DNA of 50,884 nucleotides from Ectocarpus siliculosus. Its lineage: Eukaryota > Sar > Phaeophyceae > Ectocarpales > Ectocarpaceae. A program made the translations under genes and the position numbers. Shown in pieces: positions 10,519 through 50,659 of the stretch. Where the stretch lies: positions 134,722-185,605 of the forward strand of contig FN648456.1 of the NCBI GenBank assembly GCA_000310025.1, given 5' to 3'. The notes under the pieces were generated by a model that saw only the letters and a program-made list of their open reading frames with translations, was not told the DNA's origin and did no database searches. How positions within the stretch are numbered: position 1 is the first letter of the stretch; each line of letters starts with the position of its first letter.

Positions 10519-13500
10519 CTATTCGCTGTCAGAAGCGCTGCTAATCTCGGCCTGGCGGGGGCGTGCTACCTCCGCCCTCGCCTTCTGGACAATCCTAGAC
10601 ACGGAATACGCGGCCTTAGTCTTGTTCGTTCGGACGACCTTCATCTTCCTCGCCAGCGTCACCGGCTCGGAATAGATGTCGGCGTTCCACCTTCGAGATT
10701 GGTACATGTTGTGGTTAATAATTATATTTCAAGAATACCGTGTTGGTGGTGGTTCTTGTTCTGCTCCTGATGGTGGTGGCCTCATCCATACCTTCCCAGA
10801 CTGCGGGAACCGCGATCCTTTCTTCCTATCGTTCACTCTCTTACTGCTACCATTTTTCATTTCAAGACCACTATTTTGCTTACCCGATGAACCTTCTGCT
10901 CCCTACGAAGGGCATTAGCTTTTTGTGTCATTGCTCTCGCACACGAACATGCAGACACAAGCGCAATGCGTGTGCAACACCACTTTGATGTCTTTGGGGA
11001 CCAAACATGTTCTCATTTCTAGCATTTCATACTACTGTAACGTTTCATATGCCGTTGCATGAAACAGAAATGATGCGCCTCTAATACGACGTATGAATGT
11101 CGCGCTGCTACAGTATTCGCCGCAAAAATATGGTTCGCTTGTGCTGTGTTTAGTCCCACATGCCCTACTGCCAGATAGATGACGATTTCACATCCAACGG
11201 AGTACCTGCACTTCATCATTTCACTCACACCCATGCATTCTGTCGGTGTGTCGCTTCGTGAGAAGCGTGAAGACTGTCACCGGAACAAATGCACACGCAA
11301 CAAACAATGGCCGAAGCATTCGCGAACAGCTGCGGGAAGTATCGGGTTCGTCGTGCTCTCACGACATGCAAACTTTGCCTCTCGATTATGGATTCGTTCG
11401 AGAAGAGTGAAAAATATTCACCCCAGCCCTTACCTGCAGATACCGGGTGCTTCGTCGGTGCCGTAAATTTCTTGGAAAATAAACCACACGAGAGCTGCAC
11501 CACAGCAGAAGTGGATGAAGACGGCAGTTACGACAGGACGGAGAACGGGCAGGGGACAGAGTGTGGAGAATCAGGAGAAGAGCAGACGCAAGCTTGCTTG
11601 GGGGGAGCGGGCGAGGGACTCGACATGAAGCAGAGGAAACAGCGGGGAGACCGGGTGACGGAGAGCAACCACGCCGGGGGCGGGCCGGGCGGGCGACTGG
11701 ATGGTGGGTGGGTTCCATGGACAGACAGACGTGCATCGGTTCTGCCACTGATCTCTCCACGCTGCTTCGGCTCGATCCACAAAACAAAAATATGGTCATA
11801 AACGTACGCATCCTCCGTCTCCTACGAACTGGTTGGATCGATGGATACGCGCAATGATCGTCGAACACCAAAGGACGAACGGCTGTCCTGGCACACGGCC
11901 AACGGTACGCAGCAGCCACGCCTGATTCGGGTTCTATGTCCCGAGGACGAAGGGTATTTGATGCACACTCACGCACAGTGTCCACTTACGATGGATGATT
12001 CGGTAGTCTTTCGCTATCTTGAGCCCCTGAATGAACCTAGAGTCGCTGTCGAGGGCGAGGGAACCCACCTCCACTCCGAACGCAGGCGCCATATTGGCGG
12101 CTGGCAGTTTTTGTCCGGATACCATAACAACCACAGCGTCGATCACGGTATCACGGTATCACGGTATCACGGTATCACGGTATCACGGTATCACGGTATC
12201 ACGGTTGGTTTCGAGTTTGAGCAAGAGTGCGTTACACGGTGGCGGTGTTCGCTACGCACCAATACAAAAAATATCAAGACACAAAATCCGATCAAAAAGG
12301 AGAGAGAAAGGTAGAACGCACGCACATCTCGACCGGGAATTTCATTGTCGTCACGTTGGTGCGACTCACCGCACGGTTGCGTTTTGGTGCTTTCGCTGGG
12401 TGCTATAGCGCGGGTATTCAGCGGTACCACCCTCATTATCAGTAAAGTTGCCGTAGGCTTATTCCGGATTGTATCAGGCATATCTATGGCCGCAGTTCAG
12501 CTCCTCGTTCGGAAAAAACTGTTGACTAGTCCCAGTACACATCGCGAAATCCGGAGTTGCCGCACAGGAGGGGTGCCACAATATAGGGGAAACCGAAAGG
12601 CAATTGACGCACCCCCTGTGCCGTGGCAGGCAACCTTGCGGTGCGCCAGCAAGCGTATATTTTAATTATTTCGACTGGTTTTTCGGGGGCGACTGATAAC
12701 TCTCGTGGTGATATCTGCTTTGGTTGCCACCGAACGATGTTGACATGACCAACTGACCCATAGACGATACCCGATAAACATTCACAACAATATTCCCGAC
12801 ATGATACTACTTTCTCCTGCACCCCACCCGCACCCCCGTTCTCACTCTAACCGCCAACGAAGGATTCAAGAGGTGGTGGGCTCTCGGACAACGGAGGGAC
12901 TCTGTCGCTATCTACATGCTCGGTGACGCAGTATACGGTCGAGGTATCGCAGGGAACATGTGCCGGAGAGCCAAGAGCAAAGCATCAACTTCCCTTGTTT
13001 CAATGGTCTTCAACGAATCACCCACAACGTGCACACGACGAAACATTTTTTTTGGACTGCCTACACAAACAACGTAGTATATGCCGAAAACAGACCAGGC
13101 AGAGGGCACGTAGACCCTAACCCTAACCTTAGCCCTAGCCCCAAGTTAGTGAGCCGATTCTACTATGTATGTTTTGCGTACTTTGAAAAACCTGCGTAGA
13201 CTACACTGGGACTGATTTTTTCGACGGTTAGATTAGTTTACTGCCGTAGTCCTCACATTTTGCGGAGGTGGACTGGTCGCCGTCGCCGTCCGGTGGGTAG
13301 AGGTTGAGGTTGCTGATAGGCCCCGGCGCGCTCGCCTGTCCCATGACAAACTTCACCCAGGAATTGATCCACTTTGCGTCGATCACAAACCAAAACTCTC
13401 CGACGTGGGGGTTGATGGTAGGCCTGAAATATATGGTCGACGATCACACAACAAGAACAAATGGCAAGTTTCAGCATGGTGAAAAAATGATGTTGGCTTC

Positions 13501-16347
13501 TCTTGGTGCGAACCTAGATGTGGCTGTGACGATGATTGGTGCAAAAGAGAGTTGGGGAACGTACCAGACATAGCAACACATATCTACTACACCACACACA
13601 TGCTCGAAACCCGAGACGTACTCTACAGCGGGGTTGAATGACTGTCAAAAACCCAACGACGCCGTCTCGACTGGTCACGAGTTTCGTTGTCAGATACCGT
13701 ATTTTCGACGGTGGCCAACACCTCATCTTACACGGGACACAATGGATTGAGTATAAAGCATTCTACCGCACTTACCAGACCAAATCGACGAAAATAACAC
13801 GACCCATCACATCACCACGTACCTGTCGAACTTCTTGATGAGGGCCAACTCGGTTGCCCGCCTAAATCGGGGATATCCGGAAGCGTACGTACGTATGCGC
13901 AGCAGCGCCCGAAACGAGCACCAGCGGATGGACGCGGGGTCAGGGGGGGTTTCATTCTCTTGAACATGGCGACCATTCCTTCGTGGTGCCACCAAGCACG
14001 ATTTTTTTTTGCTGTTCCAACGCTTTCGTTCAATGGCACCCCAGCCCCATTTCTTCCTCCTTCTCTCCGTCTCTCGAGGATATCGCTTTTTTCTTTCTAC
14101 ACGGATGGGCGATACGAAAGGGCAATCCCCCAGTCTGCTTCGCGGTTGGGATGCAGAGGCAGGGCCAGTCTACGAGGTTCACCCACTGCCGCAAACATCT
14201 GCGCGCGGTGGATGGGGTGGAAATACTAGAAAATACCACGTCAAGCGAGTGCGCCGGTCTGCAGGAAAACACAGAAGATCGGATGCCATCGCTCGAAACG
14301 ATTACTACAGTGGACGAGAGGAAAACATAGACAAATACATTGCGCCCCAAAAAAGAACCAGAAAAACAAACGACACCCAAATATTGTCCAATTCAATACG
14401 GCCCGCGAAAAAAATAGTTCATATTGAACGGCCGCGCAATGAACGGGTTTTGAGTCGGTCGACACGGGTGCTGGAGATGCTAGTTCTTAACCGATTCACC
14501 CGTCGGTGGCAATTCGTTCCAATACGTGGTGATCAGTGTGCAAACGAGAATATTATCATTACAATCACCTTCTGTCGAGAGGAAATTCAGCCGGGAAGAC
14601 GCCCAAGCTTCGCCTCTCCTCTTCGGGCATCTTGTGGTGCGGCGACTTCCCCGCGAGGATGATGCGGTCCAACCTGTTCGACGTGGTGGACGCGCCCTAC
14701 TCGGCAGGCGGCGCCATTTAACGCGTGCACGAAGGGGACGGAATTTCAGGTGACCGGCCGCCTCAGGAGCCAACTGCAGAGCGATCTCAGCCCCATGCCA
14801 TGGCAAGTGTACGGCATTTATTTGCCGCACGCATTGTACGCAACTGCTGTCACTGTAGCATTCATAGTTCTTCTCAACCGATGCAGACAACCAGCGTTGT
14901 GCACAACACCGGGACTGCGCAGTCCTTCCTGATGATGCAGACCCGATTTTTGAACGGCGAGCGCACACGGTCGTACTCACGTGAAGGCGCGTACCGCTTG
15001 GGGAACCCCTCGTCCGAACAATGTCGTCTGTGTCGCCAAATGCTGAATACTAAACAATACACGAAGCGACTAAGGCGTTTCGGAGGGTTGGATGGCGGAG
15101 GGGCGGCGGCTTGGAAAGTATGATCACTTATGCTGAGAGGAGGGGGGAAGTGACACCAGGCCGATACTTCTTGGAACACGGAAAACAGCTTCAGTTGTTC
15201 GAAATTGTTTGTTGTAAGCTTTCAGATGCATGATGCTTCCATCTGTCTTGACAGCTGTCCATACTTAGCTGAAGTGTCCTCGGTGGACCTGACTGCAAAC
15301 ATCACCGGTACGTCATAATCATTCCTCGCTGAGGTAGTACTGCCATCCGCCCCGCACTACGAAAACGATACTAGTCGATCGACATGCTGGTTGCCCGCAA
15401 TATGTAATAGCAATTTGTGCGATCATGAGGTACAGCAGATGACCGCTTGAATGTTGAGGTTGGTCAGCTTCAGCCTCCTGGAAGGCGGGGTGTGTGCGGG
15501 GGCATGGAGGGCGGCAACTGTCGCTACTGTTGTCCGAGAGGACCATTGAACGACCGGGAGCGGGCAGGGGGCACACGGCTGCACGCTGATAGGGTTGATG
15601 TTTGTCCTACGCTGCCGGTGTTTTCCCACGCAGTGTGTCCACGTTGACCCCAAAACAGCTGCACAAGTCAACCGCGCCGGCACCCCTGAGCTAAACAAAA
15701 CGAAATTCTTGTGTTCTGGCAGGTTTTCGCTTGTTCGAGGAAGGGGAACGGGGGGGGGGAGGTAGGGGTCCAACTCACCCGGGAGCTCCCCCTGGAGACG
15801 GTGGAGAGAGAGCCTGAGATGAACACGCCTTCTCTAGGGCGTGAGTGCTCCTTCGGGCTGTGACCGGTGACGCTCCTTCGCAGCATGCGCGCCCACCGCC
15901 GCGGGAAAGCGATAGCGGGAGGCGGGGCGGCGGCGGTGGCGCTGCCTGTGTCGGAGGTGTTGCTTCGTCGTCGCTCCGGCGGCTCCGCCCCTGCCGCTGG
16001 CTGCGACTCGTCCATTGGAGATGGTGTGTAGAGCGCTCCTATCTGCTTGATCTCTTCCAGCCTTGCCCTGCCCGCCACGGCACCTCTCCCCCACCCTGCC
16101 CTGTCGACGATGCCACCGCCCGCGTTTTCAATGTAGGTGGCAGGGGTTGTGGTGCTGCTGCTGGCGTCGGCGGCGGGCGTGATGTCGTTGAGTTCGATCA
16201 CCGCAGCGGAAGCCGACGCCACCGCCGCCGTCATCGTGCGTTTTTGGACGGGGTTTGGCAGCTCTTGGGGCGCCTCCATTTCGCCCAGAGTACCGAGACC
16301 ATTGCCGTGCCACGGTGCCACCGGATACAGCTCATATCCGTGGGATG
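10519..16347 (-). CDS. DUSP-domain protein, paralogue A (multi-exon)
   Basis: Exons in transcript order: 16347-15779, 14672-14569, 13861-13823, 13423-13242, 12100-11990, 11494-11434, 10690-10519. All junction phases agree, giving about 411 residues to a TAG stop. An earlier 5' exon ending in phase 1 is still missing. The first exon is low-complexity. The DUSP domain covers about residues 226-355: GEFWFVIDAKWINSWVKFVM, then SAPGPISNLNLY, DYRIIHPLVWFIFQEIYG and GICRW. These match the DUSP consensus (Y/F-x-LI-x3-W-x3-W, PGPI-x-N, DY...VW...YG...R). DUSP domains occur mostly in ubiquitin-specific proteases, often beside ubiquitin-like folds; no protease Cys or His box is seen here. Copy A is the most diverged. 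It ends in a single exon where B and C have two, and its tail is shorter. Acceptors include one AAG. Confidence 0.82.
12142..12205. repeat. Eight exact copies of an 8-base unit (ATCACGGT)
   Basis: The octamer is repeated eight times without error across 64 bases. It lies in the DUSP-A intron, about 40-105 bases upstream (in transcript sense) of the acceptor of the exon at 12100-11990, where the branch point should be. Confidence 0.95.
13113..13143. repeat. Interstitial telomere-like tract
   Basis: It reads accctaaccctaacc, then decayed ccttag and ccctag units, i.e. degenerate TTAGGG repeats on the minus strand. It lies in a DUSP-A intron. A similar tract is at 44918-44955. Confidence 0.6.
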
Positions 16348-17041
16348 CTGGAAGACGAACAAGAGGGGGGCGGGAGGGGGCGAGATGCCTCAAACGGGTT
16401 TGCTGCCTGCACGATGCACTCGAACCGATGATGCCTCTGCTTTCCTATGCAGACTAATAGTCATAGTGAAAGAGACCGCGGATGTAGGACGAAAATCAGG
16501 CAGCGGAGCAGCGGAACACCGTTGCGTAGAGAGCTGTGTGCGAGGGTTGTCGGCAGCAGGAGTCCCCGAAAGACATCGGCCGAACGTGGTTGCGCAAATT
16601 TTTCTACCTGCATCCCGACACATCAGCTGCCACAAGTAGAACGCAGACAGGTTCTAGCCGTGAGTATGAGGGTAAGGGGGGCTTCCACGAGGTGTATCAC
16701 CGCCACCGCCTATTTAGGTGTAGCTTCAAAGCACGTGCATACAGCAGTGCGCATTCGGCGTGCCCAGAATCGAACACGGGCGCATTCGCACTTCAAAACA
16801 GGTCTACATTACAAGTAGAACTGCCTAGACGGACATGCGGATGCTATCGATTGAGCTGACAAGTGGCCCTGCCGCAATTCTCCGTGTGGTACCCATTGAA
16901 TACCCTGGTGCCAGGGTGAGCTTTCCCACGACACCATCGACATCGATGATGCACAAATAAAAAGGGCAATGATTACATAGCTAGCGGTGCAACAGGAGGG
17001 CATCTCCGCGATGAGATGACGTACAAGTGGCAACAACGCGC

Positions 17042-17104
<63 letters not shown>

Positions 17105-18039
17105 ATTCATGTGAAACGGCTCCGTCCGATGTCTGCTCAACTCCGTCTCCCATCTGCATATCGTTCGTACAATAGCCACCGCACCACCGCTACAATTGTA
17201 TAAGTACGACGGAGAGAGAACATGTACTACGTCGGCAATGTCCCTCCTGTGCATAACAACCCGAAAGGTATGCATACAGACAATAGGACACATGCAGAAG
17301 AGAAGTTCCACAAGCGAAGCGTAGCCTACAAGGTACATGGTCTACAACATTGGTGGTGACCAGAACAGACTTTACCCACAAACGACAGACCAACGAGAGA
17401 CCCGCATTTGTTGAATGGGGGAGACTTTCGGAATGAGTCACTGACCATCGAGCTCGTCTGTTGCAGTTTCTTGAACAGTGCTGAGGCGGCGGGATGACTC
17501 GGGGGACTGGGGTGACAGGAACATGTCGGTTGCTCTCGTGGGTAGGTGGCGAGTCAATCCACGTGGTGCGATGTGAATGGCCTCCCGTGGCCAGGTGAAA
17601 TGAACCGACGCTCTGCGTCAAAGGAGTACCGGTGCGTGCGTGCGTGGGTCCGGGTCTACGGTGCACAGTAGTAGTTGGTTTCGGCGGCAAGAGCAGGGAC
17701 GGGGAGGTGGGGAGTAGAGAGCAACGCACTGCACGTACGTACATAAATCTACCACCGACAGGCTGGGTGCCAACGATGGATAGACAAATTGAGAATTGGC
17801 GAGTGGTTGAAACGTTGAAAGAATCCGAGTTGTATTTCATCTACATAGTCAACCATTTCATTTTCTCGCATCCACCTGTGACGTGACACAGCTCCACATG
17901 GCAGACCACGAAACCTTCCTGTGCAGTAGTTGTGTACGGCTGCTGGTCTACAGGAACATGGCAGTAGTACCGCTGTACGTCGAACAACCCCGAGCCGTAC
18001 TTCTTCAGGATATCGTGTACACAGCTTTGGAGGTTTTCC
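16348..18039. other. Upstream region of DUSP-A; 5' exon not located
   Basis: The promoter and the missing first exon of DUSP-A should lie here on the minus strand. I find no ATG-plus-donor that satisfies the required phase with confidence. A TTG microsatellite (17042-17104) lies within. Otherwise no coding signal is seen. Confidence 0.4.
17042..17104. repeat. TTG/CAA trinucleotide microsatellite
   Basis: About 21 uninterrupted TTG units. The poly-Asn or poly-Thr open frames across it on the minus strand are products of the repeat, not genes. Confidence 0.97.
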
Positions 18040-18700
18040 ACGCGTGGGTGGACCGCTGGGCTGTCGTCTTGACGACACGTGCTTGTCCTGCGAGGAGAAA
18101 GAAGACTGCTGCCTTGATGGAGAAAAAAGACTGCCGCCTTGAAGGTTGATTCAACTGTACCGCTTTAAAACGATGTACATTCATGAAATGCATTCGGAAA
18201 GTCTTTCGGAAGGGAGGTAACCCGCCTGCTATTGTCAACCATTGGTGTGAGCAGGAGGACGGAAAGTCCTGACTGCGGTCTATTTTCAATACACCTTCCA
18301 CAGCTGCATGCAGAATAGTATACTATATTCACATGAATACCGTATACGACACAAGATGACACACCCCCCGGCCCGATTTTCAAAAGCTGGATTTATCAAC
18401 AGCAATAAGAGTCGGGGTGCCCAAAATGGCGGCGTTGAAGCCTGCTGGTCGAGATCTCTCCGAAAACGTATCGTTTCGTTTATACATCCTCTTGGTCGTG
18501 GAGTAATCGAGCTTTCTTTGAAATCGGTCCAAGGGGTGTGTTATCTTGTGTCGTATACGGTATGCTACAGTACACATCTCGTAATAAACCTCCAGCTTGC
18601 CCTTTTCTCGCTGGCGGTTTGATTGCCTGCGCGTAGACCCTCTGGACTAATGGACAACGTAGCAGTGTCGCCCCAGCTCGTGTGGGCATGACAGGCTACC
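18040..18700. repeat. Duplicated flank, partner of 30650-31345
   Basis: Two anchor segments match: 'aggagaaagaagactgc' near 18095 and 30700, and 'atggacaacg.agcagtg' near 18650 and 31309. Order and spacing are the same once the 221-base MITE at 18340-18560 is allowed for. Both segments lie upstream of a DUSP gene, so this is part of the segmental duplication. Confidence 0.6.
18340..18560. mobile_element. MITE copy 1 (TA target site, 28-base TIRs)
   Basis: The left end CCGTATACGACACAAGAT continues for 28 bases and is repeated inverted at the right end with one mismatch. TA dinucleotides flank both sides (18338-18339 and 18561-18562), as in Tc1/mariner-type insertion. It has no coding capacity. 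It is about 85% identical to the copy at 20072-20289. Confidence 0.92.
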
Positions 18701-22535: not shown

Positions 22536-25500
22536 TTAGAGGTCTGCGACGCCAGCACCGTATTCATCGGCGACGAGCAGTCGTTTCGACGAGCGCCAGG
22601 CTTGGTACTGCCTGTAGCTGGCCTTTTTTCTTTGGGCTTCTTCGATCTTCTCCCGTTCCTGCGAGGCCTGTGTCTCCTTCGCCTCCCTCTCCTCGATTGC
22701 CGTTCGCTTGATCCTTGCCACGAACCTTGGATAGCGGGCATGGTGCAGCAGGGTCGGGTGTACTCATGAAAACACATGCCGTATTCGTTAGACCATTGAC
22801 CTCGCATTCTTACAATTCCCAGACGGAGCTATATATATGCCGGGTTTTCACTGACCCAGGCTGTGTTTGAATGAGAAGCTGGCCATCATTCTTGCGCTTG
22901 ATGTGCCAAACCACGTTACGCTGTGCGTTGATTGGGCATAACAGCTAACCAAACGTCTCACATTCGGCGGGAACCAAACCACTGTACTTCAAATACCGCT
23001 TCGATTTTTTCGCGGTTGCACGCATCAGGCGCGCCGCACACAGCCAGCTGCTCGCTCCGTGTGTGATGCATTAGAATTACAGACATGTACAGTAGTCCGC
23101 CACAGTAATATTATTCTTGCGGAAAATTCCGATGGCGTGGTTCATAAGAAACGTTTCCTCTATGTACTTGAGGCGTTCCAACTATCCACTGTCCAACGAC
23201 GAACATCCTCTACATTGTCTTGTGTTCCTGTTTCGGTACCCCTGGCGACGCCTCTTCTTTTCCTTGTCCTCCACACAATACAATAAATAGCAAAACGGAA
23301 ACGTCACGAACGCGCACCTACGGAGCTGGTGTATTGCCTTCGTCTGACTCGGTTCCAGGATCCTAGTCCTCCTCAACCCCGCCACCTCTTCGGCATACAC
23401 ACTCAGCTTCCACCTGTCACGTCGTGGTTGTTCGCTTCGTCGGTAGGGACTCGTCGTTATGCATTTTTGATAGTGGGCGGGGCGAGTGGGTTCGTCGGTG
23501 GGCGCGCTGGCTTTCGTGTATGGCTAGAGTCTAAAGGGTCGTGTCACCGGCCGGGCTGATAGTGCTCCCAGTGCGGGCGAGCGAGATGGCTGGCGGGCAG
23601 GCAATGGTTCGTTCGAGGGCGGTACTGCCAGAAGGGACCTCCACCAGCATATGCACCCAGGCACACAGATTCGTGCGTGTGCGGCGTATCGAGTACTGAT
23701 GTTCTCGGCAGAACCTGACATCAGACCACGAGTGAACCCCAATCTGCTGTAGAATGTTTGGGCGAAAGTCACCCTTCGATGTCGCTAGAGGGTGGTCGTG
23801 CTTTTCGAGGTGTGGTTCGCACTGCATTCGACATGCCTGAAGAACCACGTCCCACGAGTACCACCTTGCCCATAGAGGTATCCCGGCATATCGTCTGCCG
23901 CCTGTGTGTGGTGGGACGTTTGGCGGACGGACACCAGCCGGTTCCACGCCCACAAAAGCAGACGTTCATTTCCCGCGCAAAAAAAAAAAACATTCGGACG
24001 AACGCCCAAGCCCGCTCGCCCTCCTCCTCCTAACAGTATCCCAACCTCCAGGCCATAATCCAGTTCCACCTCACCTCACCTGCGGATTCGTTCGATCTAA
24101 TGATATTTTCACCACACGGCCCACCTGCAGATTTCCGGGGTGCCATCCGTGGTATAAATCTCGCGAAAGATGTACCACACCACCGCTAGAAAGGGTTGAA
24201 GAAAATCGAAGAGGAAAAAGGCGCAAAATAGCACCAGCAGGCAAACAGCAACACGCACATCGAGAGCGGGAGCGAGCGGACAAAAAAAACAAGGGTGGGT
24301 GAACAAAGACAGGCGCGTACGTTGAAAAAATGCAACAAATAACGTGGTTGGTGTTTAGTGGACGCTGAAGAAGCCAGGGTTGAACTCGAACCGTATTTGG
24401 CACCATTTCGTTACCTTGCATCCCGTGAAGACTACCTATAATACAGTACATTAGATGTGCACTCATTGATCCAACCCAACAGCGGGTCTTTCAAAGGTCA
24501 TCCGAACGGACGAATAATTTGGACAGCAACCACAATGGCATCACAGTGACATCAATGCTCACGGTGAATCGCCCTGTAGTCGCTGATGGCCTGCAGGTCC
24601 TCCTTGAACTTGGACATCTCCGCCGGCATAGGCGCTCCTCTGGTCGGGGCTGGGGCGATTGATCACCCCCACGAGACACGGGTCGGTCGATTCGGGGCCA
24701 TTAGGGGCGTCGAAGCTCTGCCAAACTTTGGGTCACTTTGGCTTTGTTTTCAAGACACCCCGAACTTTGCTGGACACCGAAGGGTCACGTTTTGAATAGT
24801 CCGACGATAATGAATGGCGTTTCTCGGTGGACCCGTCGTAAGCCGGAATTTTCCAAGGAAAAATGGGGAATCCGTCCTCTTTGCACAGGTGCGTAGTAGG
24901 TGCTGGTGAACCTAGCAGATGAATTGCACGAGGTGCACTGCTGTAGCACCAGTAGCAGCAGTAGATCCACAAACCATCTGCCCTGGGCGCCACCGTGTGT
25001 CCCAGGTATCAGGGAATGCTGACCCAAGACGTTTGGATGGGACAATACGCAGTAGCGATACGACAATACGCAGTAGCGATAGAGACCAGCCAAGGTGTTT
25101 TCCGACTCAACATAGGCAACCAGCACCAGCGGCAGCGGTAACAACATTTCAACGACGACGACAACGACGACAACTTACCCGTCCGTCGAAAGGCGGCGTT
25201 GTAGGCTCCGGATCGAGGCATGGGGGAGAAGGCGTCTTCCGTGAAGAGCCTGCCGTTGGAGATGGGGCCCGGCGGGCCCGCCTGTCCTAGCACGAACGCC
25301 ACCCAACGAGAAACCCAGTGGGCGTCGATCAGCATCCAGAACTCCCCGATGTTGGGGTTGATCGCCAGCCTGACGTGACGAAACGAAGGCGCGAGATGTT
25401 TTTGTTTTTCCAGTGGTATGTAGACACAGGTGCCGGGCTTGGAAAAGCAGTAAAGGTTTCCGCAATATTAACAACCGTTGTTCCCAAGTTTTCACGAGTT

Positions 25501-28256
25501 TGCTCAGACATGGTGAGGTTTGGTTTGTCTTGCTGCTTCCAACAGCAAAGGAATTTCGGGCGTGGACATGTGCGGGGAGGGGGGGGGGGGGGGGGTGCTT
25601 CCACCTGAAACCGGGGAATATTTGGGAGGGGGTTCCCAAAAAAACCCCAACCGGCGAAGTTGTTGGGGGGGGAGGGTGGCTTTTTTAATTTCCCCCCAAA
25701 CCAGAAATCCGGGAAACAAAAAATTTTTAAAAATTTTTTTAGGTGGGGGGCCCGGGGGGGGGGGAAAAACCGGCAGGGNNNNNNNNNNNNNNNNNNNNNN
25801 NNNNNNNNNNNNNNNNNNNNNNNNNNNNNNNNNNNNNNNNNNNNNNNNNNNNNNNNNNNNNNNNNNNNNNNNNNNNNNAAGGGAGGGGGAGGGTCGTCGA
25901 GAGAGAGCGGGGGAGTATTGGGGAGGGTGTCGACTACAAAACTCGAACACGTCGATAGTTGTTGAGTCGGATGTTGTCATCTAGATTTCCACCGAACCAT
26001 GAAATCGGGATAACGAATACTTTAGAACTAGTCTAATGCTGGAGCCAGCGAGCGGTAAATACCTGGCACGTGCACTTGTTGTCGAACAAAAAAAGACACA
26101 CACACACACCTGAGGTGAGTTGAGAAAGAAACAGTGCAAGCCGGGATCTAGTCAAGCGATCCTTTCGGGCGTTGTGGTACCTACGTAGTCCCGGAGGTGT
26201 TTTTTCCTCGTTGTTCTTTTCCCTTCCATACTGTAGTTCGTTGTTATTTTCCCTTCCATACTGTAGTCCCTCAGAAACTCCTTTTTTCTATCACCAGGCG
26301 TGAATGCACACAACGTGCTTTGGGAACTTTGTTCTTCTCGTGTTGCGATGCATTTTGTTTCGCGAATGAATGCAAGCAGCACATTTCCCTCCTCTCTTAG
26401 AACTCTCTTCACGTAGAAACCTATGCGCACCTACCTGTCGAACTGTTTGATGAACTCGACTTCATATACCCGTCTGCAGAAGCGCACCGCCACCGCCACC
26501 GCCGCCGTCCCACCCGACAGCAAGAGGCCCACGGAACGCCAGGCAGCAGACGGCGGAAAGACAGCAGCCAGGAGGTCGGAGGAGAAATTCCGTCGCAAAG
26601 AGAGCAAGCGCCGACGGGGCCACGGCCAGCGCCGACAACCACAGGCGAGAGACCCACCACCACCATACACAGCACCGAGGGTCAGTGGGGGGGGATGGGA
26701 AACGAGGAACAGCGTCAGCAAGGAATACATCAACGAGCACTTCTTCTGGCTTGTTGAGAATACCGCACTTCCGGAGCCTTCGATATATGCTCGCTAGCGT
26801 TAGGGTGTTGCAACGCCGGGATGGAGAAGGAAGGAGGGGGCTCAGTCTGTAGGGGCAGGTCGTGACGGCGTCACATTGCTCATGGCGCGTTGTCAAGCGC
26901 AACGCTCGAAACCTCAACCCCTTGGGCAAGGCTTGGTAACGACAACACCGTTTGGAGTGATCTTCTGGTTGGGGAAAACCACTTTCGTGGGCAAGCAGCC
27001 CGAGTTGCGACAGCGACGGGACGAGACAGCCATGGTTTCTCACGTTACGTATTCCCACTCTCTCGCGCCTTGTGCCTAACCGATGGAAGGGTTACAGTAG
27101 CACCGTACACAGATGAGGTGGCCGGATAGCGGCTGCAACCGGGATGCACGCAGATTTTTCTGCAACCCCAAGAGCAGCATCCAAGATCAACGGCTGCGAC
27201 ATCAACGAGCAACGAGCCGTACCTGCTAGACATCGGCAGGTCCAGGGGGAATACGCTTCCCGCGCCCTCGCTCGCGAGCGGCTGGGCGAAGATCTCGGTG
27301 GCCTTGGCGTCGGCGGTTATCACGCTATTTCCTAAAAACCTCTATGTGTTGCGCCCGACGAGGCACCACAGCGGCAAACCGGGGTAAGTTTACCGGTAGT
27401 TTGAAAGCACGCAGCACTCACGGTTGTTGGCTAGACCAAGGTACCGGGGTCAATACGTATTTTAGTCTAAGGCCCTGCCCGCCAGAATTCAACCGCACGG
27501 CGCTCCGATTTCCGTGCGTTCGTCGATAGTGTCAAGCAGATTGTCGATTGAGCCTTTCTGCGGACTTGCTTGCGGGGTGGTGGGTCACATCAACCTTTAT
27601 TCGACTTTTTGAAAGTACACCGGACAAGGCTAATCGGTAAAATTAGACCTTCCGGCTAGTCAGCGCTGACTAGCCGGATGGTCTAATTTTACCGATTAAA
27701 GGCCTGTTGATAAATGAAGCGACCGCAGGCTACCCGCAACCACCAACCAGGAGATCAAGCCTAGCCGACAGGTCGGAAAGCATAGGACCGCAACGTACCG
27801 AGGGCACCGGACTCGAGCGCCCGACACTCCCCCCCCAGTCTCCTCTTGCGTCGCCCCCGACACTCTCCGGGGTTGCAGGGACACTTGCGGCAGGAGAGAC
27901 GCCCCCTCCCGGTGCCGTTGTGGGGCCGACAGCGCCTGGAGAAACTGCTGTCGGCGAGTCGTCGTTTTCGCGCAGCCCTCTGTCTCCGCCAACCGCGCGG
28001 GCGGCGGGGGGGGGGGCGGCAGCAGACGCAGCAGGAGGACTAAGCAGCGGGTGGTTCGAGGTGGCAGTAGTGGCGCTGAGGCCGCCAGCCGACGGGGTCG
28101 CGAAGGGGGCTTCGTCGTCCAGGGGCCCGTCCGTGTCCATCGCCGGCGTGGCAATAGACGGAGGTGCCGTCTGGCTTGGGTAGGCGAGTTCTTCTACTTT
28201 CTGCGGGGCAGATTCCCCGAAATGCTTGGAGACCTGCCGATCAGCATCGCTCTCGC
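22536..28256 (-). CDS. DUSP-domain protein, paralogue B (8 exons found)
   Basis: Exons in transcript order: 28256-27799, 27341-27223, 26473-26435, 25369-25179, 24649-24563, 24185-24125, 23413-23318, 22725-22536. Every junction is in phase, giving about 412 residues to the stop; the 5'-most exon is not found. First exon: Pro/Ala/Ser-rich, with PSIATPAMDTDG shared with copy C. Second exon: ends SVFPLDLPM. The 39-base exon adds RVYEVEFIKQFDR. DUSP domain, about residues 195-320: GEFWMLIDAHWVSRWVAFVL, PPGPISNGRLF, DYRAIHPVVWYIFREIY and EICRW. Tail: YAEEVAGLRRTRILEP, then a long Glu/Arg/Lys/Gln-rich helix that may be a coiled coil. No ubiquitin-protease catalytic box is present. An in-frame ATG exists at MDTDG, but conserved codons upstream of it, with mostly third-position differences from copy C, argue that translation starts earlier. 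One intron contains the assembly gap. Confidence 0.86.
25560..25778. other. Likely low-quality sequence beside the gap
   Basis: Homopolymers are inflated (long G, T and A runs, 'ggggggggggggggggg', 'aaatttttaaaaattttttt'). The sequence looks like a distorted version of the preceding stretch and of the homologous DUSP-C intron. I read this as a poor read end, not biology. Confidence 0.7.
25779..25878. other. 100-base N gap
   Basis: Exactly 100 Ns, the usual size for an assembly gap of unknown length. It lies in the DUSP-B intron between the 39-base exon and the first DUSP-domain exon. Confidence 0.99.
26209..26267. repeat. Tandem duplication of a 29-30-base unit
   Basis: Two copies of 'cgttgtt.ttttcccttcc' plus 'atactgtagt', differing at one base, in a DUSP-B intron. 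Confidence 0.9.
27631..27698. repeat. 68-base near-perfect palindrome
   Basis: The left arm starts TAATCGGTAAAATTAGACC and the right arm is its reverse complement. The arms are 34 bases with one mismatch and no spacer (centre CAGC|GCTG). It lies in the first found intron of DUSP-B and would fold as a hairpin in RNA or a cruciform in DNA. Confidence 0.95.
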
Positions 28257-35229: not shown

Positions 35230-35319
35230 CGTCTGATGGTACAAGAGGGCTTGGGGTCGCCGTCGCGGTTGTGAACAGCCCCACCTGTTTGTTTTTTCGA
35301 TCAACCATATTCGTGTCGT

Positions 35320-35930
35320 TTGTGGTCAGATGCATCTGGCGATGCCATGGGGGGTATTTCTTGCATGCTGAATTCAGTTCGGGAGTATGATGGCGTTTCG
35401 AATTCAGTCAGGAAGTGCGGGACAGGTTTCGCCAGCAGGCTGAGGTGCGCGATGATTTGAGCATCAACACGCTCGAACTCCTCGCGATGGTGGTTGGCGC
35501 CTAGGTGCTTATTGTGCAATCGGACATGAGGCCGGAGAACGCTCGCAATAGCATCCGTATGATGGGAGACAACTCCTCGAGTGTGGCTTGGGTGGAAAAG
35601 TGTCGGGGGGGCGAGCCCCGCTCGGGGGCACTTATGCGTATACTCGGTTGTTTGAAGATGGGCAGTGGGTGGTGCTTTGAGGCGGCTCATGTTAAGGGTG
35701 TCGATAACACGATTGCGGATGACATTTCACGATGGGAGCCGGAGACCATTGACGCACACCTTCGCCTGTCCCGTCCCAATGTCGCATGGCGCCAACAGGT
35801 CTTGGACCCGGAGGTCGCCGATCTTTGTACCGGCGTCTTAGCCGCGAGTACGTCCGCGAGTCAGTTGCGCAGTCGCCTCGAAGAACTTACATGCCGGGTT
35901 GGCGGGCTTGGTGTGCTTTTCGCGGATTGA
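35320..35930 (+). pseudogene. RNase H of the DIRS-like element
   Basis: An interrupted first part has SDASGDAMGG near 35330 and INTLELLAMVVG near 35465. The second part is open from 35505, with MGDNSSSVAWVEK, and EAAHVKGVDNTIADDISRW near 35678-35735. These are the expected D, E, D and H/D blocks of DIRS RNase H. Several stops fall in the first part. Confidence 0.75.
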
Positions 35931-36895
35931 TTGGCGAGTCGGAGTACCTCTCGGGGGAGGCGGACGATACACGGTGCTGGGACAAGCACTCCTGGAGTTT
36001 GTAGCGTGGTGTTGTGCAGATAAGGGTAACGTTGCACCGACCATTTCCGGCAAGCTGGCCGCTGTACAGTATTTTCATCGCGTCGATAGGAGGCTTCAGT
36101 AGCCGACCGGTGCGCCCCTCATCAAACAGAGTTTGTTGGGTGTTGCACATGCCCACGTGCGAGCGGGTACGAAACGTCGGAGTCGTGTTCCCGTCTCGTC
36201 AGAGACGTTGTGGGAGGGATAGCAGCTGACGGCGTCGTGGGGGATGGGCGATCGGGTCCTGTGGCTGTGCTTGGCGTTGTCGTATTTTCTGGTGGCGCGT
36301 TCGGATGAGATTTATGCTACGATGTCGGGGCAATGCCACCAGGTGCATTGTTTGCGGCGGAGCGACGTCGAGTTTTTCGACGGGGAGCACGTGTTACCCC
36401 CGTTGCACTGGTTCAAGGCTACGGGTGTTCGGATTCGGTTTCGTGGCCACAAGGGAGATCAGGGCATACGTTACACGAATGCGCGATGTAGCACGAGGCG
36501 CGAGTTCTCAGATTGGTACCGGTGGCGGTGCCGTGGCGGTGTTGGTGGAATTGATGTCGTGCCATCTTGCTTTGCCTGAGAACACCCCAATGTGCTCGTT
36601 TCGCTGGAGCAATACGGTAAAGGTTTGGGAATATTCCAAAGCTCTTAGCGCCCTTCGTCAGATTGTGGAGACAGGTGGCGACCCGAGGCAGGTTGGCTTG
36701 CATTCGTTGAGGATCGGGGCCGCCAGCACGTTGGCAGCGGGAGGAGACGTACCGGATAGAATTATACAGAGAGAGGGTAGATGGAAGGAAGGTTCCGGTA
36801 CGTTCAAGATATATACTCGGGACAATATGGTGGACGTAGAAATGGTATCCCGTAAACTAGCAAAGGGGAGGAAGACGGAGCAGAAGAAGGGTTAG
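35786..36895 (+). pseudogene. Tyrosine recombinase of the DIRS-like element
   Basis: The N-terminal core-binding part is in pieces (RRTYMPGWRAWCAFRGLIG; TISGKLAAVQYFHRVDR; a basic stretch near 36150). The catalytic part shows box A in LVARSDEIYA (Arg at 36298), then GHKGDQGIR, box B in GLHSLRIGAASTL (His at 36701, Arg at 36710), GRWKEGSGTFKIYTRDN with Trp and the nucleophile Tyr at 36812. All key residues are kept, but two frame changes and stops (35999-36001, 36100-36102 region, 36577-36579) break the ORF. Recombinases of this type insert circular cDNA by strand exchange. Confidence 0.85.
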
Positions 36896-37319
36896 CATAC
36901 ACGAAGGTACGGGCAAGGGAGGCGGGATGCCGTCCCACAAAACGTCGATGTTGGTGAATGTCAATGGTAGAGTACCATGGGGGTCTCGGTATACTGAGAC
37001 GGCATTTTGTTAGGCCCGGCAAGTTGACATGAAAGGGAACTTGGATTCTGGATGAGAGAGGGAAGCGACCGGTGTCGCCCCCTCGTTATTTGCTAGAGGG
37101 TTACCTTCCAGACTTCGTGGAAAATAATATTAAAAATGACACTTCGGAAAAATACAATAAACCACAATAATACTCACCGACGTTTAAACCCTGACCAGGC
37201 CACTTGGCCACGTCGTAAGTTTGTTGGCGACGCCTACGCCTACGGCCTACATAGAATTGAGCTCTTGGTTTTCCGTTTTTCTGCGTCTTTCGCTGCAAAA
37301 CGGCATGGCACACCCTCCC
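36896..37319. other. 3' end of the DIRS-like element and 3' flank of DUSP-C
   Basis: The 8-base inverted repeat atgccgtc/gacggcat (36929 and about 37006) and surrounding 'acaaaa' similarity may be a terminal structure of the element. No gene is seen. Confidence 0.4.
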
Positions 37320-40300
37320 TTAGATGTCTGTGCCTGGAGTGTCGTGTTTGTGGCGGATGTCGAATCCTTTCGACGAGCGCCAGGCTTGGTGATGCCTGTA
37401 GTCGGACCTTAATCGTTGTCGTTCTTCGATGATCTCCCTTTCGTGCGACGCCTGCCTCTCTTTCATCTCCTTCTCCTGGGCTACAATATGCTTGATCCTC
37501 GCGACGAACCTTTGGCAGTCGGCATGGGGGGGGGGTGGAGGGGGGCGCAAGAGACAGAAATAAGCATGACATTTGGTGCCTGCGAAAAGCCAACACAGCA
37601 TCAGCAGTTGTAGCCAATGGCAGGTCTAGGGAACCCTGTGTCATCTTCGTCGCCAACCAGAGTTCAAAGTGTGTTCTCGTCGACCTTATCGCTATTGGCC
37701 GGATGTTTTTCGACCGGAACCCGCTCACCCCGCTTAATAATATTGGCTGAGGTGGTTGTGTCCCGGTATCGATTGGAGAACAGCAGGAGGAGGGAAAAGA
37801 TCCGTGGTGTGAATCGCTGTACTCGTGTCGTTGTTAGGTATCCGTGCACGAGCAAATGGTACGGCAAGGTACGGTGCAAAGAATGTGCTCCAGGGTCTAT
37901 GCATTGGTACAGGTGGTGTACGCCTTCATTTAGGATCTTCCTCCCTGTCTTGTGTGAGTACCGCGAGGACTTCGACCATCCTCTTGTTCTTGTATAGGCG
38001 ACGTTGGTTCATTGCTTCTCGTTTCGGCCGCTAAGTTGACGCCATAAACTAAGCAAACGGACACGGCACGAGCGCACGCACCTGCGGAGCTGATATATCG
38101 CCTTGATGTGGTTCGGCTCCAGAATTCTAGCCCTCCTCATTGCCGACACCTCTTCGGCGTACAAGTCCAGCTTCCACCTGTCACACCGTTGTTCGTTGTA
38201 TGTTAAGAGAAAATCTTAAAGGCGGGGGAGGGTGAGTGGGTGCGTCGGCGGGTGTAGTGACTACCACCCATTACCATCGTCTTGAGGCCCCTAAGGAAAA
38301 AGTGCGGATCAGCGACGGGATGAGTCAAGTCGACTCACCGGCCAGGCTGTTGGCAGCGCCCCAAGCGCAGGCGAGGGAGGTGGGCAATCACACCAACGCA
38401 TACACCAAGCACATGGAACGTTGTGGCAGTCATTGAATGCAACGTGTGGAGTGGCTGTGTGTCGTGGAACGTGTGGCGGACGATGGCCAGCCGCCACAAC
38501 CATGCCCACAGGCGGTTCCAAGCGATGTATTGAAACATTCCAACAAAAGGCGACGAACGTTGCCGGCGTCTCCCCATCATAAGAAGGCACCCTCCTGAAT
38601 CTTGCGTGCTGCAAACAAAATGCACTACACTAGGTCAAGCACGCTGGACCCGTTCGATCCCCAACCACACACACGCACCCAGTATCACGACTTCCAGGCC
38701 ATAACCCGGTATCGCTTCACCTATATAGCTGCGGTTTCGTTGGATTCTACGGTCAAGCTATTGTGAAAGCGATAGCACACCACCACACACCTGCAGATGT
38801 CCGGGGTTCCATCGGTGGTGTAGATTTCGCGAAAGATGTACCACACCACCGCTAGAGAAGGCGGTAAGTGCAACAATGCATAGAAACGCACCGAGCACAA
38901 GCAGGCAACAGGCACACGCACATCGGGAGTGAACAACGGACAAAAACCCAACAATAGTCTAGTTAGGCAAGACACAGCAAAATAACGTGGTTTGTGTTTT
39001 GGCAGGGACGCCGAAGAAGCCAGGGTTGAACTCGGCACGTCTTTGGCACCCTTTCGTTACCTTTCCCTCCCGTGTTGACCGCACAGGACAAGATATGCGC
39101 TCATCGGCCCAACAGGTTTCGTCCGAATGTCGTCAGCACGAGCAAACAACCGGAGCAGGTGATCACGGCCGGGATAGCAACAACAACAACAACAACACCG
39201 ACATCGAAGCTCACGGTGAATCGCCCTGTAGTCGCTGATGGCCTGCAGGTCCGCCTTGAACTTGGTCTTCGACAGCGTTGGCCCAACTCTGATCGGACCT
39301 GGGGCTGTCGATCACCACACACCAGAGACGGGTTCGTTTGTTCCGGCCGTTAGGGGACGTTACAGCTCTACCAACCTGCGCTGGAGTTGGGGCTTTAAAA
39401 GACCTTCCCGCCCGACTGACGGCCCCCCCGGCGTTTGCCGTCAGGGTTGGGTTTTCGTCCCTTGGCAACGACGTTGCTAAACAAGCCGCCCCCCCCGGTG
39501 CTTGCCGTCGGGGTTGGGTTTTCGTCTCTTGGCAGAGATGTTGTAATACAAACCGATCACGTCGTGAGCTCGGCAACCATGTTACCGCTTTTTTCTTTCG
39601 CCTTTTTTTTTTTGCGGTAACCATAATGGGGGTCGAGTAGGTTATGGTGTGCGGGGTCGAGAACCCTTACTTCGCGCAAAGGGGATAATCGCACCAGGTT
39701 GTGTTAAAATTGGTCAAGCACCCTCGAGGCAGTTACACAGTGCTTGCAACTGTCTCTGGAAGTGAAAGCACCAGAAATTAAATTCAGTCATACGCAGCAG
39801 TGTCATCCGTACGCAAGGAGGTAACCACAAGATGCCGAGCACCCTCATCAGGATGCAGCGCACCCTTCATGCGACTCGCCGAATACCTCACGGCGCTTCG
39901 CGCTTGGTGATGCGAGAGCCTGGTCCGGTGAGAACCCGGCGTGCTCCGTCCCCGCTTTGTAGAGATACGAGGTCAACGGTCTAACGACTACGGCATGCAC
40001 GACTATGAGTACCCCCCCCCACCCCGCCGCCGTTGCTGCGGACCGAAGAGGAATGTTTTGAATAGTCCAACAGCAATCGTGGGTTTTTTTATTGTCGTCC
40101 CGTCCAAAGCCGGAATTGTCCATGGCTAAACTTGAATATGTCTTCTTCGCCCACGGTCGGGGTCGGCTATGCCCTGGGCACCACCGTGTGTGTCTCAGAC
40201 GCCAGTTTATGCTGACCACGCAGACGTTTGGATGAGAACTATGTACTTGTAGAGACAAGGGCGATTCTGAATCATCGTAAAACAAAATCAAGACGAGCAG

Positions 40301-43300
40301 CAGCACTAGCACTAGCAACATAACATCAACGTCACCGTCGACGACGACGACGACGACGACGACAACGTATTCGCAGTAGCGATAGAGACAAGCCAAGGCG
40401 TTTTCAGGTTCAGCATTTTGCTATATGAGGACGAGCACCTTTCTCTCTTTTTTTTTCTCTCTCTTTTTCTGTGCCAGATGGACTTGTCTCTGCTTGCGTT
40501 GTGAAGTACCAAGATTGAACCAAGGGAGTGTGCCTCTTTCTCTCCGGCCCATGATAGATAGTGACTGCTAATCTCAGTTGATACCCCGCATAGCGTGAAG
40601 AGGGAGCGGAGGATCCCAGAATATCTGTCGTTGATTTCTATTGACTTGCGGACCCCTCGGGGCCAGTTTATTTGAGTGTACCTTTTTAGGGTAAGTTAAC
40701 CTGTGACCACGGGAATCGACCGCGTCGAATGTTGGATCAGTACGGACATACGAAGGTACTGGGTAGAGAGAGATCGGAACGGTTTTTAATGTGAAGACAA
40801 CAACAACAACAACAACCACCAGCACCACCAGCACTAGCAACAACATTGCAGCCACGACGAAGTCGATGGCGACGAGAACGCCATCGACGACAACTTACCC
40901 TCCCGTCGAAAGGCGACGTCGTAGGCCACGGATTGAGGCGCCGCCGCCGCCGCCGCCGTGGGCGCAAACGCGTCTTCCCTGTAGAGCCTGTCGTTGGAGA
41001 TGGGACCAGGCGGGCCCGCCTGTCCTAGCACGAACGCCACCCACCGAGAAACCCAGTGGGCGTCGATCAGCATCCAGAACTCCCCGACGTTGGGGTTGAT
41101 GGCCAGCCTGACGTGACCGCAACACGAAGGCGGTGGTGAAGGTTCCGACACTAAAAGTGGAGAGTCGTTGCGAGACGCGAGGTGTTGCTTGCAGTGGTCA
41201 TGTAGAGAACAGCATGTGTCAACGAATGCAAAAACCATTCCCTCTTTTTCTCGTTTTCCGATGTTTTGTATGCGGTTGCAAGAGCAAAGCGATTTCGGAC
41301 GACAATGTGGGGGCGCGCGGGACTGAGAGGGAGGAGCAATATGGAAGGGTGTCGACTAGACAACTCGAACTCGTCGAGAAAGCCGAATCGGATATCGTAT
41401 TCTAGCTCTATCCTAGCAACGAGGGGACAAGAAGAGTGCTCTTGAGGACCCCCAGTAGGGGCGGTGTAACGATTAGCGCTCCGTGGTCCCCCAACAAGAC
41501 GGAAAAATATGCGAGTAGACCGCTCAACCAATGGCCAAGAAAACTGCCTTGCGTTCTCCCCTGCAGTGGTTTGGATCCAAAAGTGTGCCTGTCCGTTTGT
41601 CTGCAGGCTTGACCGCCGGAGTACACAGTGTGTCCTGAAATCTCTTTGTTTTTGTTTTGGATGTGTTTGTTTCCTCTTTATTCTTTTTCTGTCGTTCTTC
41701 CTTCAACTCCTCGTGTTTTGCATCCTCAGGCGTGATTGCAATTGTGCCTTGCACTTGTTTCTCACTCCACGTGATACATTTCAACCAAGCAAGCGGTCTT
41801 ATCCCGCTTCTGCATCACTTTTTACATACCTGTCGAACTGTTTGATGAACCCGATCTCAAATATCCGTCTGCAGCAGCACCACCACGGCGTCGCCGCCGC
41901 CGCCGCCGCCAGACCCAAAGGTAGGTAACACGACAGAACACCGGGTACAACAAGGGACAGAGCGGTAAATTCCCATCCTCGCCTTACCGATGGACGGGTT
42001 GGTACTAGAGAGGTGGCCGGGCAGAGGCCGTAACGGGTATCCGTGCTGAGATATCACGGTCGTAAGACCCATCTTTATGGGGAGCAAATCTTCCTTTGGG
42101 CAAATCTTGCCTTTTTCGCCCTTTTGGGCAGCCTGCGTCGCGAACGAATGCAAATCAGCTGTTCGACCCTCGAGAAAAGTCACAGCTTTGGTTGAGATGT
42201 CTACAGATCACCTATTAGTTTCGCCAGGGTCCACGTTTGATTTTTTTCCAGCAGAGCAAGATTTGCAAATTCGTCCAAGATTGGGCCGGATAGCCAACTC
42301 CGAGCAAATCTTGGGTCAAGATTTGCCAAGATTTGAAAAAATGCTGGTTTCGGAAGGATTTTGCGTGAAAATTGCACATTTTGAAAAAATCAAACGGGGA
42401 CCCTTGCGAAACAAATAGGCAATTTGTAGACATCTCAGCCAAAGCTATGTCTCTTCTCGAAGGTGGAACAGCTGATTCGCATTCGTTCTGGAAGCAGACT
42501 GCCCAAAAGGCCGAAAAGACAAGATTTGCCCAAAACAAGATTTGTTCCAATAAATCGGGGTCTAAGGGCAGCATCCGAGAACAACGGCGATGACGTCAAC
42601 GGCAGTGACGCCGCACCTTCTGTTCATCGGCAGGTCCACGGGGAATACGCTTCCCGCCCCCTCGGTCGCGAGCGGGTGGGCGAAGATCTCGTTGGTCTTG
42701 GAGTCGGCGGTTATCACGCTTCTCTTGCCACAGAACCTCTGCGTTTCTCGCCGAAGGAAGGAGAGACGGGGACCACAGAAAAAAAGCCAAGAAATGCCGG
42801 TAGTTTTGAGATCTTACAGCAATGATGAACCTTGGCTGGATCAAAGTATATTCCGGGGTCAATATCACACTAAGTCTCTGACCGCATCAACTTTACACTG
42901 ATTCATCTTCATTCTCGCTACCCAGCAAGGGTTTCTACGAGGGCTTCTATCTCAACAACAGCGCTGAGTGGGGCTTGTCAGGACGGGGCCATCTACTCCG
43001 TCTGCCGCGGCGGTGTATCGAGAACCACCGTTTCTTCATCCCCTTTGGACGACTTCCTCCCCAGGGCGCGACCACACGACACCCGCAACACCATCACGTC
43101 AGGGTTGTCTTCTCTTCTTTCGTTTGCGTTGCCAGGTATACATCGCACGAATGAATGTTGCCCACGACCTTCCTGCAGGCCGAAACAGTGATTCATTGCA
43201 ACCGTCGTGCCAGGTCAACGTATAACACGGCGGTGCTCCATTTTCCGCGACATGAACACCGCGCATACGCCAATGTCGTCCGTGGAGTGCCTGTACGGGG

Positions 43301-44115
43301 TGAAATATGGCAAATCTTTTCTGGAAAAGAGAAAAAAAAATCCTAAATGTTTGTTAGTTGGGCCGGGCTATCCGCACTAAAAAAGGAAGATAACACGCCT
43401 CGCCAGAAGGTCCGGCGAAACCAAGGATGGCAACGTACCGAGTGCAGCGGACTCGAACGCCCGCCGCCCCCGCCCCCGCCTCTTGTCTCGCCCGACACAC
43501 CCTCAGGGACTGCAGGGGAAGTGGCAGCGCGGGCGGCAGCGGCCCCTCCAGGTGACGCCGCCGTCCTTCCAATGCTCGGAGAAACCGCCGATAACTCGCC
43601 GTCGCGCAGCCATTTGCCTCCGCCAGCGGCACCGGCAGAGACCACCCGGGCGGAAGCATCCGCAGGGCCCGGCGACGGGTCAATCAAAGCAGCAGAAGCG
43701 GCAGAAGCAATGGGCTCGAGGCCGCCCGCCGACGAGATCGCGCGCGTGGATTCTTCCGCCAGAGAAAGGTCGGTAAAGCTGGGAACCCTGGCCTGGTCTT
43801 CTTTGGCAGTGCTCCACACTACACTCGTACCGGTGCTCCCGTAACCGCTGCCGCCGCTCCCGGCGGTCAAGGAAATCCCCGCTCCCTGGTCCAGGATGTC
43901 GCCGCCGGTGTCGCCCGCCCCGCCCCCCATCGTTTCAAAGTAGCCCCCGCCGCCGCTAGCGGCGGCAGAACTTCCTCCGTCCGTGTCCATCGCCGGCGTA
44001 GCAATAGATGGGGGTGCCGTCTGGGATGGGACGTCGAGCGCTTCTACTTTCGAGAGGGGAGAGACCCCGGAGCCTTTCGATTGCTTTTGATCAGCGTCGC
44101 CGCCGCCGCCGCCAT
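37320..44115 (-). CDS. DUSP-domain protein, paralogue C (8 exons found)
   Basis: Exons in transcript order: 44115-43439, 42738-42617, 41868-41830, 41107-40899, 39298-39215, 38851-38791, 38177-38082, 37509-37320. All phases agree; about 491 residues to the stop, with a further 5' exon missing. The first exon is longer than in B, with Gly/Ser/Ala-rich expansions, and shares PSIATPAMDTDG. DUSP domain, about residues 268-397: GEFWMLIDAHWVSRWVAFVL, PPGPISNDRLY, DYRAIHPVVWYIFREIY and DICRW. An alanine run follows the PGPI block, making this exon 18 bases longer than in B. Tail: YAEEVSAMRRARILEP, then the charged helix RFVARIKHIVAQEKEMKERQ. Exons match B closely, with many third-position differences, which points to a recent duplication under constraint. 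Two introns carry mobile or repeat insertions. Confidence 0.86.
39417..39547. repeat. Two 66-base tandem units
   Basis: Both units contain 'ttgccgtc.gggttgggttt' followed by 'tcg.c.cttggca', in a DUSP-C intron. Confidence 0.8.
42066..42562. mobile_element. 497-base foldback MITE with TAA target duplication
   Basis: Long imperfect inverted arms of about 170-180 bases (left from 'gacccatctttatgg', right ending in 'aataaatcggggtc') surround a short AT-rich centre. TAA stands directly outside both ends (42063-42065 and 42563-42565), as expected of PIF/Harbinger-type insertion. It is AT-rich compared with its surroundings, and 'caaatctt' motifs recur through it. It lies in a DUSP-C intron and is absent from the matching introns of A and B. 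Confidence 0.85.
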
Positions 44116-50640: not shown

Positions 50641-50659
50641 AATGTATCAAAACGGGTCC

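What the first reader, a model, noticed from the sequence alone, without database searches (positions are those of the whole stretch)
10519..44115. Tandem array of three multi-exon DUSP-domain genes without a ubiquitin protease
Exons recovered independently in three copies give the same order and phase. Several exon lengths are identical (39 and 61 bases in all three; 96 and 190 in B and C). Each spliced frame stays open to a stop. The DUSP consensus is spread over the 39-base exon and the next three. DUSP domains are known mainly from ubiquitin-specific proteases; here the domain sits between a low-complexity N-terminus and a charged helical tail, with no catalytic box. This could be a lineage-expanded family of ubiquitin-linked adaptors. 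The function is inference.
Basis: partly seen in the sequence, partly recalled or inferred. Interest (0 to 1): 0.78.

Follow-up and report, generated by a model that had tools for sequence, protein, structure and literature searches.

The report
Tandem stand-alone DUSP genes, brown alga
A brown alga carries three neighbouring gene copies that encode a protein domain usually described as an accessory part of de-ubiquitinating enzymes, here with no enzyme part detected, which makes a free-standing DUSP protein testable but does not reveal its job.

Summary
Three head-to-tail genes lie on the minus strand: A 16279-10519 (its first exon tentative), B 28140-22536, C 43990-37320. Spliced with consistent phases, each gives an open protein with a Pfam DUSP domain above the curated cut-off (E 8.7e-11, 1.2e-9, 1.5e-8) and no other family above its cut-off. 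Paralogue segments without an intron (two in D, one each in A and E) read straight across three of the seven junctions. The genome (a brown alga by its EsV-1-7 repeats) holds two more members, D and E, two further UCH-free DUSP loci known only from exon matches, and three DUSP loci beside a UCH protease domain. No UCH exon match lies on the window's contig. Between B and C, dN/dS is 0.38-0.45 over the DUSP exons but 0.84 in the N-terminus and 0.88 in the charged tail, which A and D lack. So the DUSP domain is the conserved unit. A protein-interaction module, possibly acting in trans on ubiquitin proteases, is the best inference; expression, structure and any ubiquitin link are untested, and other algae could not be searched. 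New variant of a known kind, moderate interest.

The parts
37320..43990 (-). Gene C, 8 exons: 43990-43439, 42738-42617, 41868-41830, 41107-40899, 39298-39215, 38851-38791, 38177-38082, 37509-37320; 450 aa; start codon proposed, not proven
   Evidence: splice model; Pfam DUSP E 1.5e-8, residues 246-356
22536..28140 (-). Gene B, 8 exons: 28140-27799, 27341-27223, 26473-26435, 25369-25179, 24637-24563, 24185-24125, 23413-23318, 22725-22536; 370 aa; start codon proposed, not proven
   Evidence: splice model; Pfam DUSP E 1.2e-9, residues 175-276
10519..16279 (-). Gene A, 7 exons: 16279-15779 (tentative), 14696-14569 (weak homology, phases fit), 13861-13823, 13423-13242, 12073-11990, 11494-11434, 10690-10519; 388 aa
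   Evidence: Pfam DUSP E 8.7e-11, residues 231-328
38791..41107 (-). DUSP-coding exons IV-VI of gene C
24125..25369 (-). DUSP-coding exons IV-VI of gene B
11434..13423 (-). DUSP-coding exons IV-VI of gene A
43977..44069 (-). Block around the proposed ATG of C, 81.7% identical without gaps to 28127-28219 of B; 5' UTR or more coding sequence
28127..28219 (-). Matching block around the proposed ATG of B

Best explanation
Three tandemly duplicated genes of a brown alga each encode a free-standing DUSP protein: a low-complexity, fast-changing N-terminus, a conserved lead-in, one DUSP domain and a variable tail. The DUSP domain most likely works as a protein-interaction module without a protease attached: it binds a partner (inferred), perhaps one shared with, or part of, the cell's ubiquitin-specific proteases (inferred), and so acts as an adaptor, competitor or trans-acting regulator. 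Shown by computation: the domain by sequence profile, the gene structures, no protease domain found, the paralogues and the uneven constraint. Inferred: expression, fold, partner and function.
For: Pfam DUSP above cut-off in 5 of 5 spliced family members A-E. The profile of A-E matches 13 PDB sequences at E up to 10, best 7.8e-6, all named USP11, USP15 or USP4 (one, 3jyu, named only as a hydrolase there and given as murine USP4 DUSP-Ubl in PMC4243247). The phmmer alignment of D with USP11 covers W..W, PG.I.N, LKEGL, DY and the final W..Y. No UCH exon match on C73 among 59 genome-wide, while the same kind of scan finds UCH and DUSP in the control L005. D reads across junctions II/III and VII/VIII, A across VII/VIII, E across V/VI. 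B/C: 974 of 1113 exon bases of B align against 1080 of 4492 intron bases. dN/dS is 0.38 for exons III-VII and 0.05 for exon VI, against 0.84 for I and 0.88 for VIII; 0.45 for III-VI. Literature: in USP4 the DUSP-Ubl part added in trans raised catalytic-domain rates up to about ninefold (PMC4243247, passages), so action in trans is physically possible.
Against: No RNA evidence; exon borders were chosen to keep frames open. No partner or ubiquitin link was tested. No structure was predicted. B/C constraint is moderate: exons II, III and V give ratios of 0.93, 0.98 and 2.22 on few changes, and codon-position counts show only weak periodicity (41, 39, 52). In USP4 it was DUSP plus Ubl that acted in trans, and no Ubl was found here. 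The UCH search is exon by exon and may miss weak exons. A-E lack the GGGP motif of this genome's canonical DUSPs.
Confidence: 0.6

Rival explanations
1. The three DUSP parts are pieces of, or relics from, larger ubiquitin-specific protease genes whose catalytic exons were missed or lost, with no function of their own.
For: In three loci of the same genome DUSP does sit 3.6-7.6 kb from the nearest UCH exon match on the same strand (C12, C62, C138:673-676k). The exon-by-exon search may miss short exons.
Against: Each window gene has its own in-frame stop in the last exon. No UCH match on C73 or C6, and none within 600 kb of E, F or G. Read-through Pfam scans (E up to 0.01) of the minus strand at 43700-50884, 28141-37319 and 13200-22500 found no UCH; the rest of the minus strand was not scanned this way. 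Coding constraint on the DUSP exons.
Confidence: 0.12
2. The family is a DUSP-fold protein that has left ubiquitin biology and binds something unrelated, for example RNA-processing or signalling partners.
For: A-E lack the GGGP motif that F, G and the USP at L004 keep and carry a family-specific CR..D.Y segment after the domain; that segment alone matches nothing in the PDB at E up to 10.
Against: Nothing here positively points to another pathway.
Confidence: 0.2
3. Duplicates drifting toward pseudogenes: the array is genomic turnover next to retroelements.
For: Near-neutral N-terminus and tail between B and C; weak codon periodicity; a copia-type open frame lies at 5-2674 and retroelement-like frames at about 32.4-36.9 kb.
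Against: All 23 modelled exons of the three copies stay open, though the models were chosen to do so; exon VI has 1 non-synonymous against 5 synonymous changes; A has diverged far from B (40% identity over the core) and still scores as DUSP.
Confidence: 0.08

Closest known systems
N-terminal DUSP(-Ubl) module of USP4/USP11/USP15
   Same: Sequence landmarks of the DUSP domain; the only solved structures matched by the A-E profile (13 sequences)
   Different: No Ubl and no UCH catalytic domain detected; where this genome's canonical DUSPs have YGGGP, A-E have Y..D.(A/T)(P/Q).(I/L)CR; the stretch between ISN and DYR is 44, 44 and 53 residues in A, B and C against 25 in D and 19 in E
DUSP-USP loci of the same genome (C12/L004, C62/L005, C138:673-676k)
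   Same: DUSP match
   Different: UCH exon matches 3.6-7.6 kb away on the same strand; the L004 domain keeps GGGP. The C138 locus rests on DUSP matches below cut-off (23.2 and 19.7 bits)
Other UCH-free DUSP loci of the same genome (F: C2/L003; G: C4/L006)
   Same: DUSP exon matches and no other Pfam family at E up to 0.01 on the same strand in about 10 kb
   Different: Canonical GGGP motif; no gene models built; G rests on two neighbouring half matches below cut-off

Membership tests
DUSP domain (Pfam PF06337) | Profile match above the curated cut-off of 29.3 bits | tested here: met
   B 39.0, C 35.4, A 44.8 (42.6 with 5' exons), D 48.0, E 41.6 bits
DUSP domain (Pfam PF06337) | Tripod-like fold of three helices and a three-stranded sheet (PMC8125482, passages) | not tested
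   Spliced proteins were not sent to structure prediction, since that tool takes proteins that the DNA gives letter for letter
DUSP domain (Pfam PF06337) | GGGP motif near the C-terminal end (seen in F, G and L004 of this genome; not a formal criterion of Pfam) | tested here: not met
   A-E have YGTDEAPGICR-like sequence there
Ubiquitin-specific protease (UCH PF00443) | UCH catalytic domain in the same gene | tested here: not met
   No UCH in the spliced proteins, none among 59 matches on contig C73, none in three minus-strand scans; positive control
USP4/11/15-type DUSP-Ubl module | Ubiquitin-like domain after DUSP | tested here: not met
   No Ubl family in Pfam at E up to 5 for A, D and E and up to 1 for B and C (HMMER filters drop most weak matches); post-DUSP profile finds nothing in the PDB at E up to 10

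The most novel reading that the evidence does not exclude
Brown algae have turned the DUSP domain into a free, tandemly amplified regulatory subunit that acts in trans on ubiquitin-specific proteases or competes for their partners, so that DUSP regulation became separable from the enzyme.
Probability: 0.2. Interest if true: 0.65.

Novelty: new variant of a known kind. Interest (0 to 1): 0.42.

Why it matters
[quoted passage not shown] A genome with seven DUSP loci without a detected UCH domain (five with spliced models, two from exon matches) against three with one nearby shows that this need not hold, and gives small proteins in which DUSP function could be assayed without a protease attached. 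Whether DUSP-only proteins are already listed in protein databases could not be checked here; I expect some are (recall).

Tried and rejected
Remnant Ubl after DUSP: phmmer of D against USP15 (4a3p) runs weakly through the DUSP-Ubl border (domain i-Evalue 0.29), but the segment alone (A4) matches nothing in the PDB at E up to 10; not supported. Homologues in viral contigs (28 pattern matches, none confirmed by tblastn) and in prokaryote genomes (24, none confirmed): none. Exon II of A by tblastn: not found; found weakly by profile. A weak match at C14:130284 (E 0.0022) was not followed.

Literature searches: 'DUSP domain' with 'brown alga' 0 papers; 'DUSP domain-containing' with 'tandem' 0; 'PF06337' 2 papers, whose passages do not describe DUSP-only proteins. 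Searches returned 6,687 and 153 papers, of which the 15 and 12 listed had no occurrence of 'DUSP domain', so they say nothing. Searches (7 listed; 6 of 37 listed; 2 listed) showed, by title and start of abstract, no paper on stand-alone DUSP. Papers of subscription journals are mostly not held, so absence in print is not shown.

Full report
The window is G000:C73:134722-185605 of a 189.5 Mb assembly of 492 contigs. The genome is a brown alga by inference: the EsV-1-7 cysteine motif PF19114 gave 150 matches, 150 of 880 candidates having been scored, and a review says that this family is expanded in brown algae (PMC7457493, one passage). The species is not known to me.

Gene structures. A six-frame self-comparison showed collinear, same-strand matches between three stretches. 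Reading the minus strand gave exons with AG and GT borders and matching phases; I chose borders by eye to fit homology and open frames. C has 8 exons of 552, 122, 39, 209, 84, 61, 96 and 190 nt; B has 342, 119, 39, 191, 75, 61, 96 and 190. For A, a scan of all minus-strand stretches of 39 nt between AG and GT or GC put one at 13861-13823 third after those of B and C (score 31; the next 4). A's following exons are 182, 84, 61 and 172 nt, the last in place of exons VII and VIII. A three-sequence profile then pointed weakly (i-Evalue 0.053) to an exon II of A at 14696-14569 (128 nt), whose phases fit on both sides, and an upstream open frame offers exon I at 16279-15779 (501 nt) with a GTGAGT donor in phase 0. 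Exon I of A has no homology support.

Independent support for the splicing comes from paralogues in the same genome that lack an intron at the same place. D (L001, C6:1787-1790 kb) reads across II/III and across VII/VIII, A reads across VII/VIII, and E (L002, C138:53-56 kb) reads across V/VI. So three of the seven junctions are supported by uninterrupted DNA; the other four are not. D needs one GC-AG intron after exon III. The N-terminal ends of D and E were not modelled.

The domain. Pfam DUSP is above the cut-off in all five spliced members: B 1.2e-9, C 1.5e-8, A 8.7e-11 as full model (1.7e-11 without its first three exons), D 1.7e-12, E 1.7e-10. The only other Pfam name was DUF2630 in C at E 0.13, 13.2 bits, below its cut-off of 27. 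The profile of A-E matches 13 PDB sequences at E up to 10, best 7.8e-6, from USP11, USP15 and USP4; the local alignments of the profile cover only the first half of the domain, while the single alignment of D with USP11 covers most of it. The Pfam match starts in the exon after the 39-nt exon.

No protease found. A genome-wide UCH search gave 59 exon matches, in about 27-28 loci by grouping; none is on C73 or C6. The DUSP search at E up to 10 gave 13 matches in ten loci, only three of the matches over the cut-off, because introns split the domain. Three loci lie 3.6-7.6 kb from the nearest UCH match on the same strand (C12, C62, C138:673-676 kb). Seven have none nearby: A, B, C, D, E, F (C2) and G (C4); where their contigs carry UCH it is at least 600 kb away. 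F and G have no gene models; F's first exon is over the cut-off (30.9 bits), G has two half matches below it (26.4 and 21.3 bits). Same-strand read-through Pfam scans of about 10 kb around D, E, F and G at E up to 0.01 showed DUSP only; the same scan of L005 shows both UCH and DUSP, as a positive control. In the window the minus strand at 43700-50884, 28141-37319 and 13200-22500 showed no UCH. Such scans can miss weak exons, so absence is probable rather than proven.

Constraint. B and C align over 974 of 1113 exon bases of B and 1080 of 4492 intron bases. dN/dS (Nei-Gojobori, own script) is 0.38 for exons III-VII, 0.05 for VI, 0.24 for VII, 0.43 for IV, but 0.84 for I and 0.88 for VIII, and 0.93, 0.98 and 2.22 in II, III and V on 16, 5 and 8 changes. 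For III-VI it is 0.45 (Fisher p 0.018). Codon-position counts for exons II-VIII are 41, 39 and 52, a weak periodicity. More distant pairs have lower ratios, for example dN 0.44 against dS 1.34 for B and D. So selection is seen on the DUSP part and hardly on the N-terminus or the charged tail; A and D lack the tail.

Distribution. All C73 matches lie inside the window, so the array has three detected genes. No relative was found in viral contigs or prokaryote genomes. Other algae could not be searched, so 'lineage-expanded' stays open.

How it may work. DUSP is described as a possible protein-interaction or substrate-recognition domain (PMC8125482 and PMC4485857, passages); in USP4 the DUSP-Ubl part speeds ubiquitin release and works when added in trans (PMC4243247, passages). 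A free DUSP protein with a low-complexity N-terminus could act as adaptor, competitor or trans-regulator. This is inference. A-E differ from the canonical DUSPs of the same genome in lacking GGGP, and A-C carry a longer stretch between ISN and DYR (44, 44 and 53 residues against 25 in D and 19 in E), which leaves room for another partner.

Verdict. A well-formed gene array by sequence; a domain usually described inside USPs, here free-standing; function unknown beyond a likely binding role. Interest 0.42.

Noticed in passing
window 5-2674 (-): Open frame of 890 aa of a copia-type retroelement: Pol_BBD and rve integrase core above cut-off, gag and zinc knuckle below it.
   Followed up: partly
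window about 32375-36895 (+), between B and C: Open frames that read like a tyrosine-recombinase retroelement: a YVDD motif near 34.8 kb by eye, and a Phage_integrase match below cut-off (E 0.0057) at 36230-36892; no other Pfam match.
   Followed up: partly
window 42095-42548, in intron II of gene C: Imperfect inverted repeat (translations on opposite strands match), possibly a small hairpin transposon.
   Followed up: no
window 18305-18563 and 20039-20286: Two copies, 88% identical over 149 nt, with partly inverted internal matches, between A and B.
   Followed up: no
window 49174-49512 and 49595-49933: Tandem duplication of about 340 nt, up to 92% identical in parts.
   Followed up: no
window 28127-28219 and 43977-44069: The block around the proposed start codons of B and C is 82% identical without gaps, better kept than the aligned rest of exon I (69%): conserved 5' UTR, uORF or unrecognised coding sequence.
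   Followed up: partly
window 25779-25878, intron III of gene B: Run of 100 N, a gap or a withheld stretch.
   Followed up: no
L003 (C2:73.9-74.9 kb) and L006 (C4:1943.7-1944.2 kb): Two more DUSP loci without a detected UCH domain, both with the canonical GGGP motif; gene models not built.
   Followed up: partly
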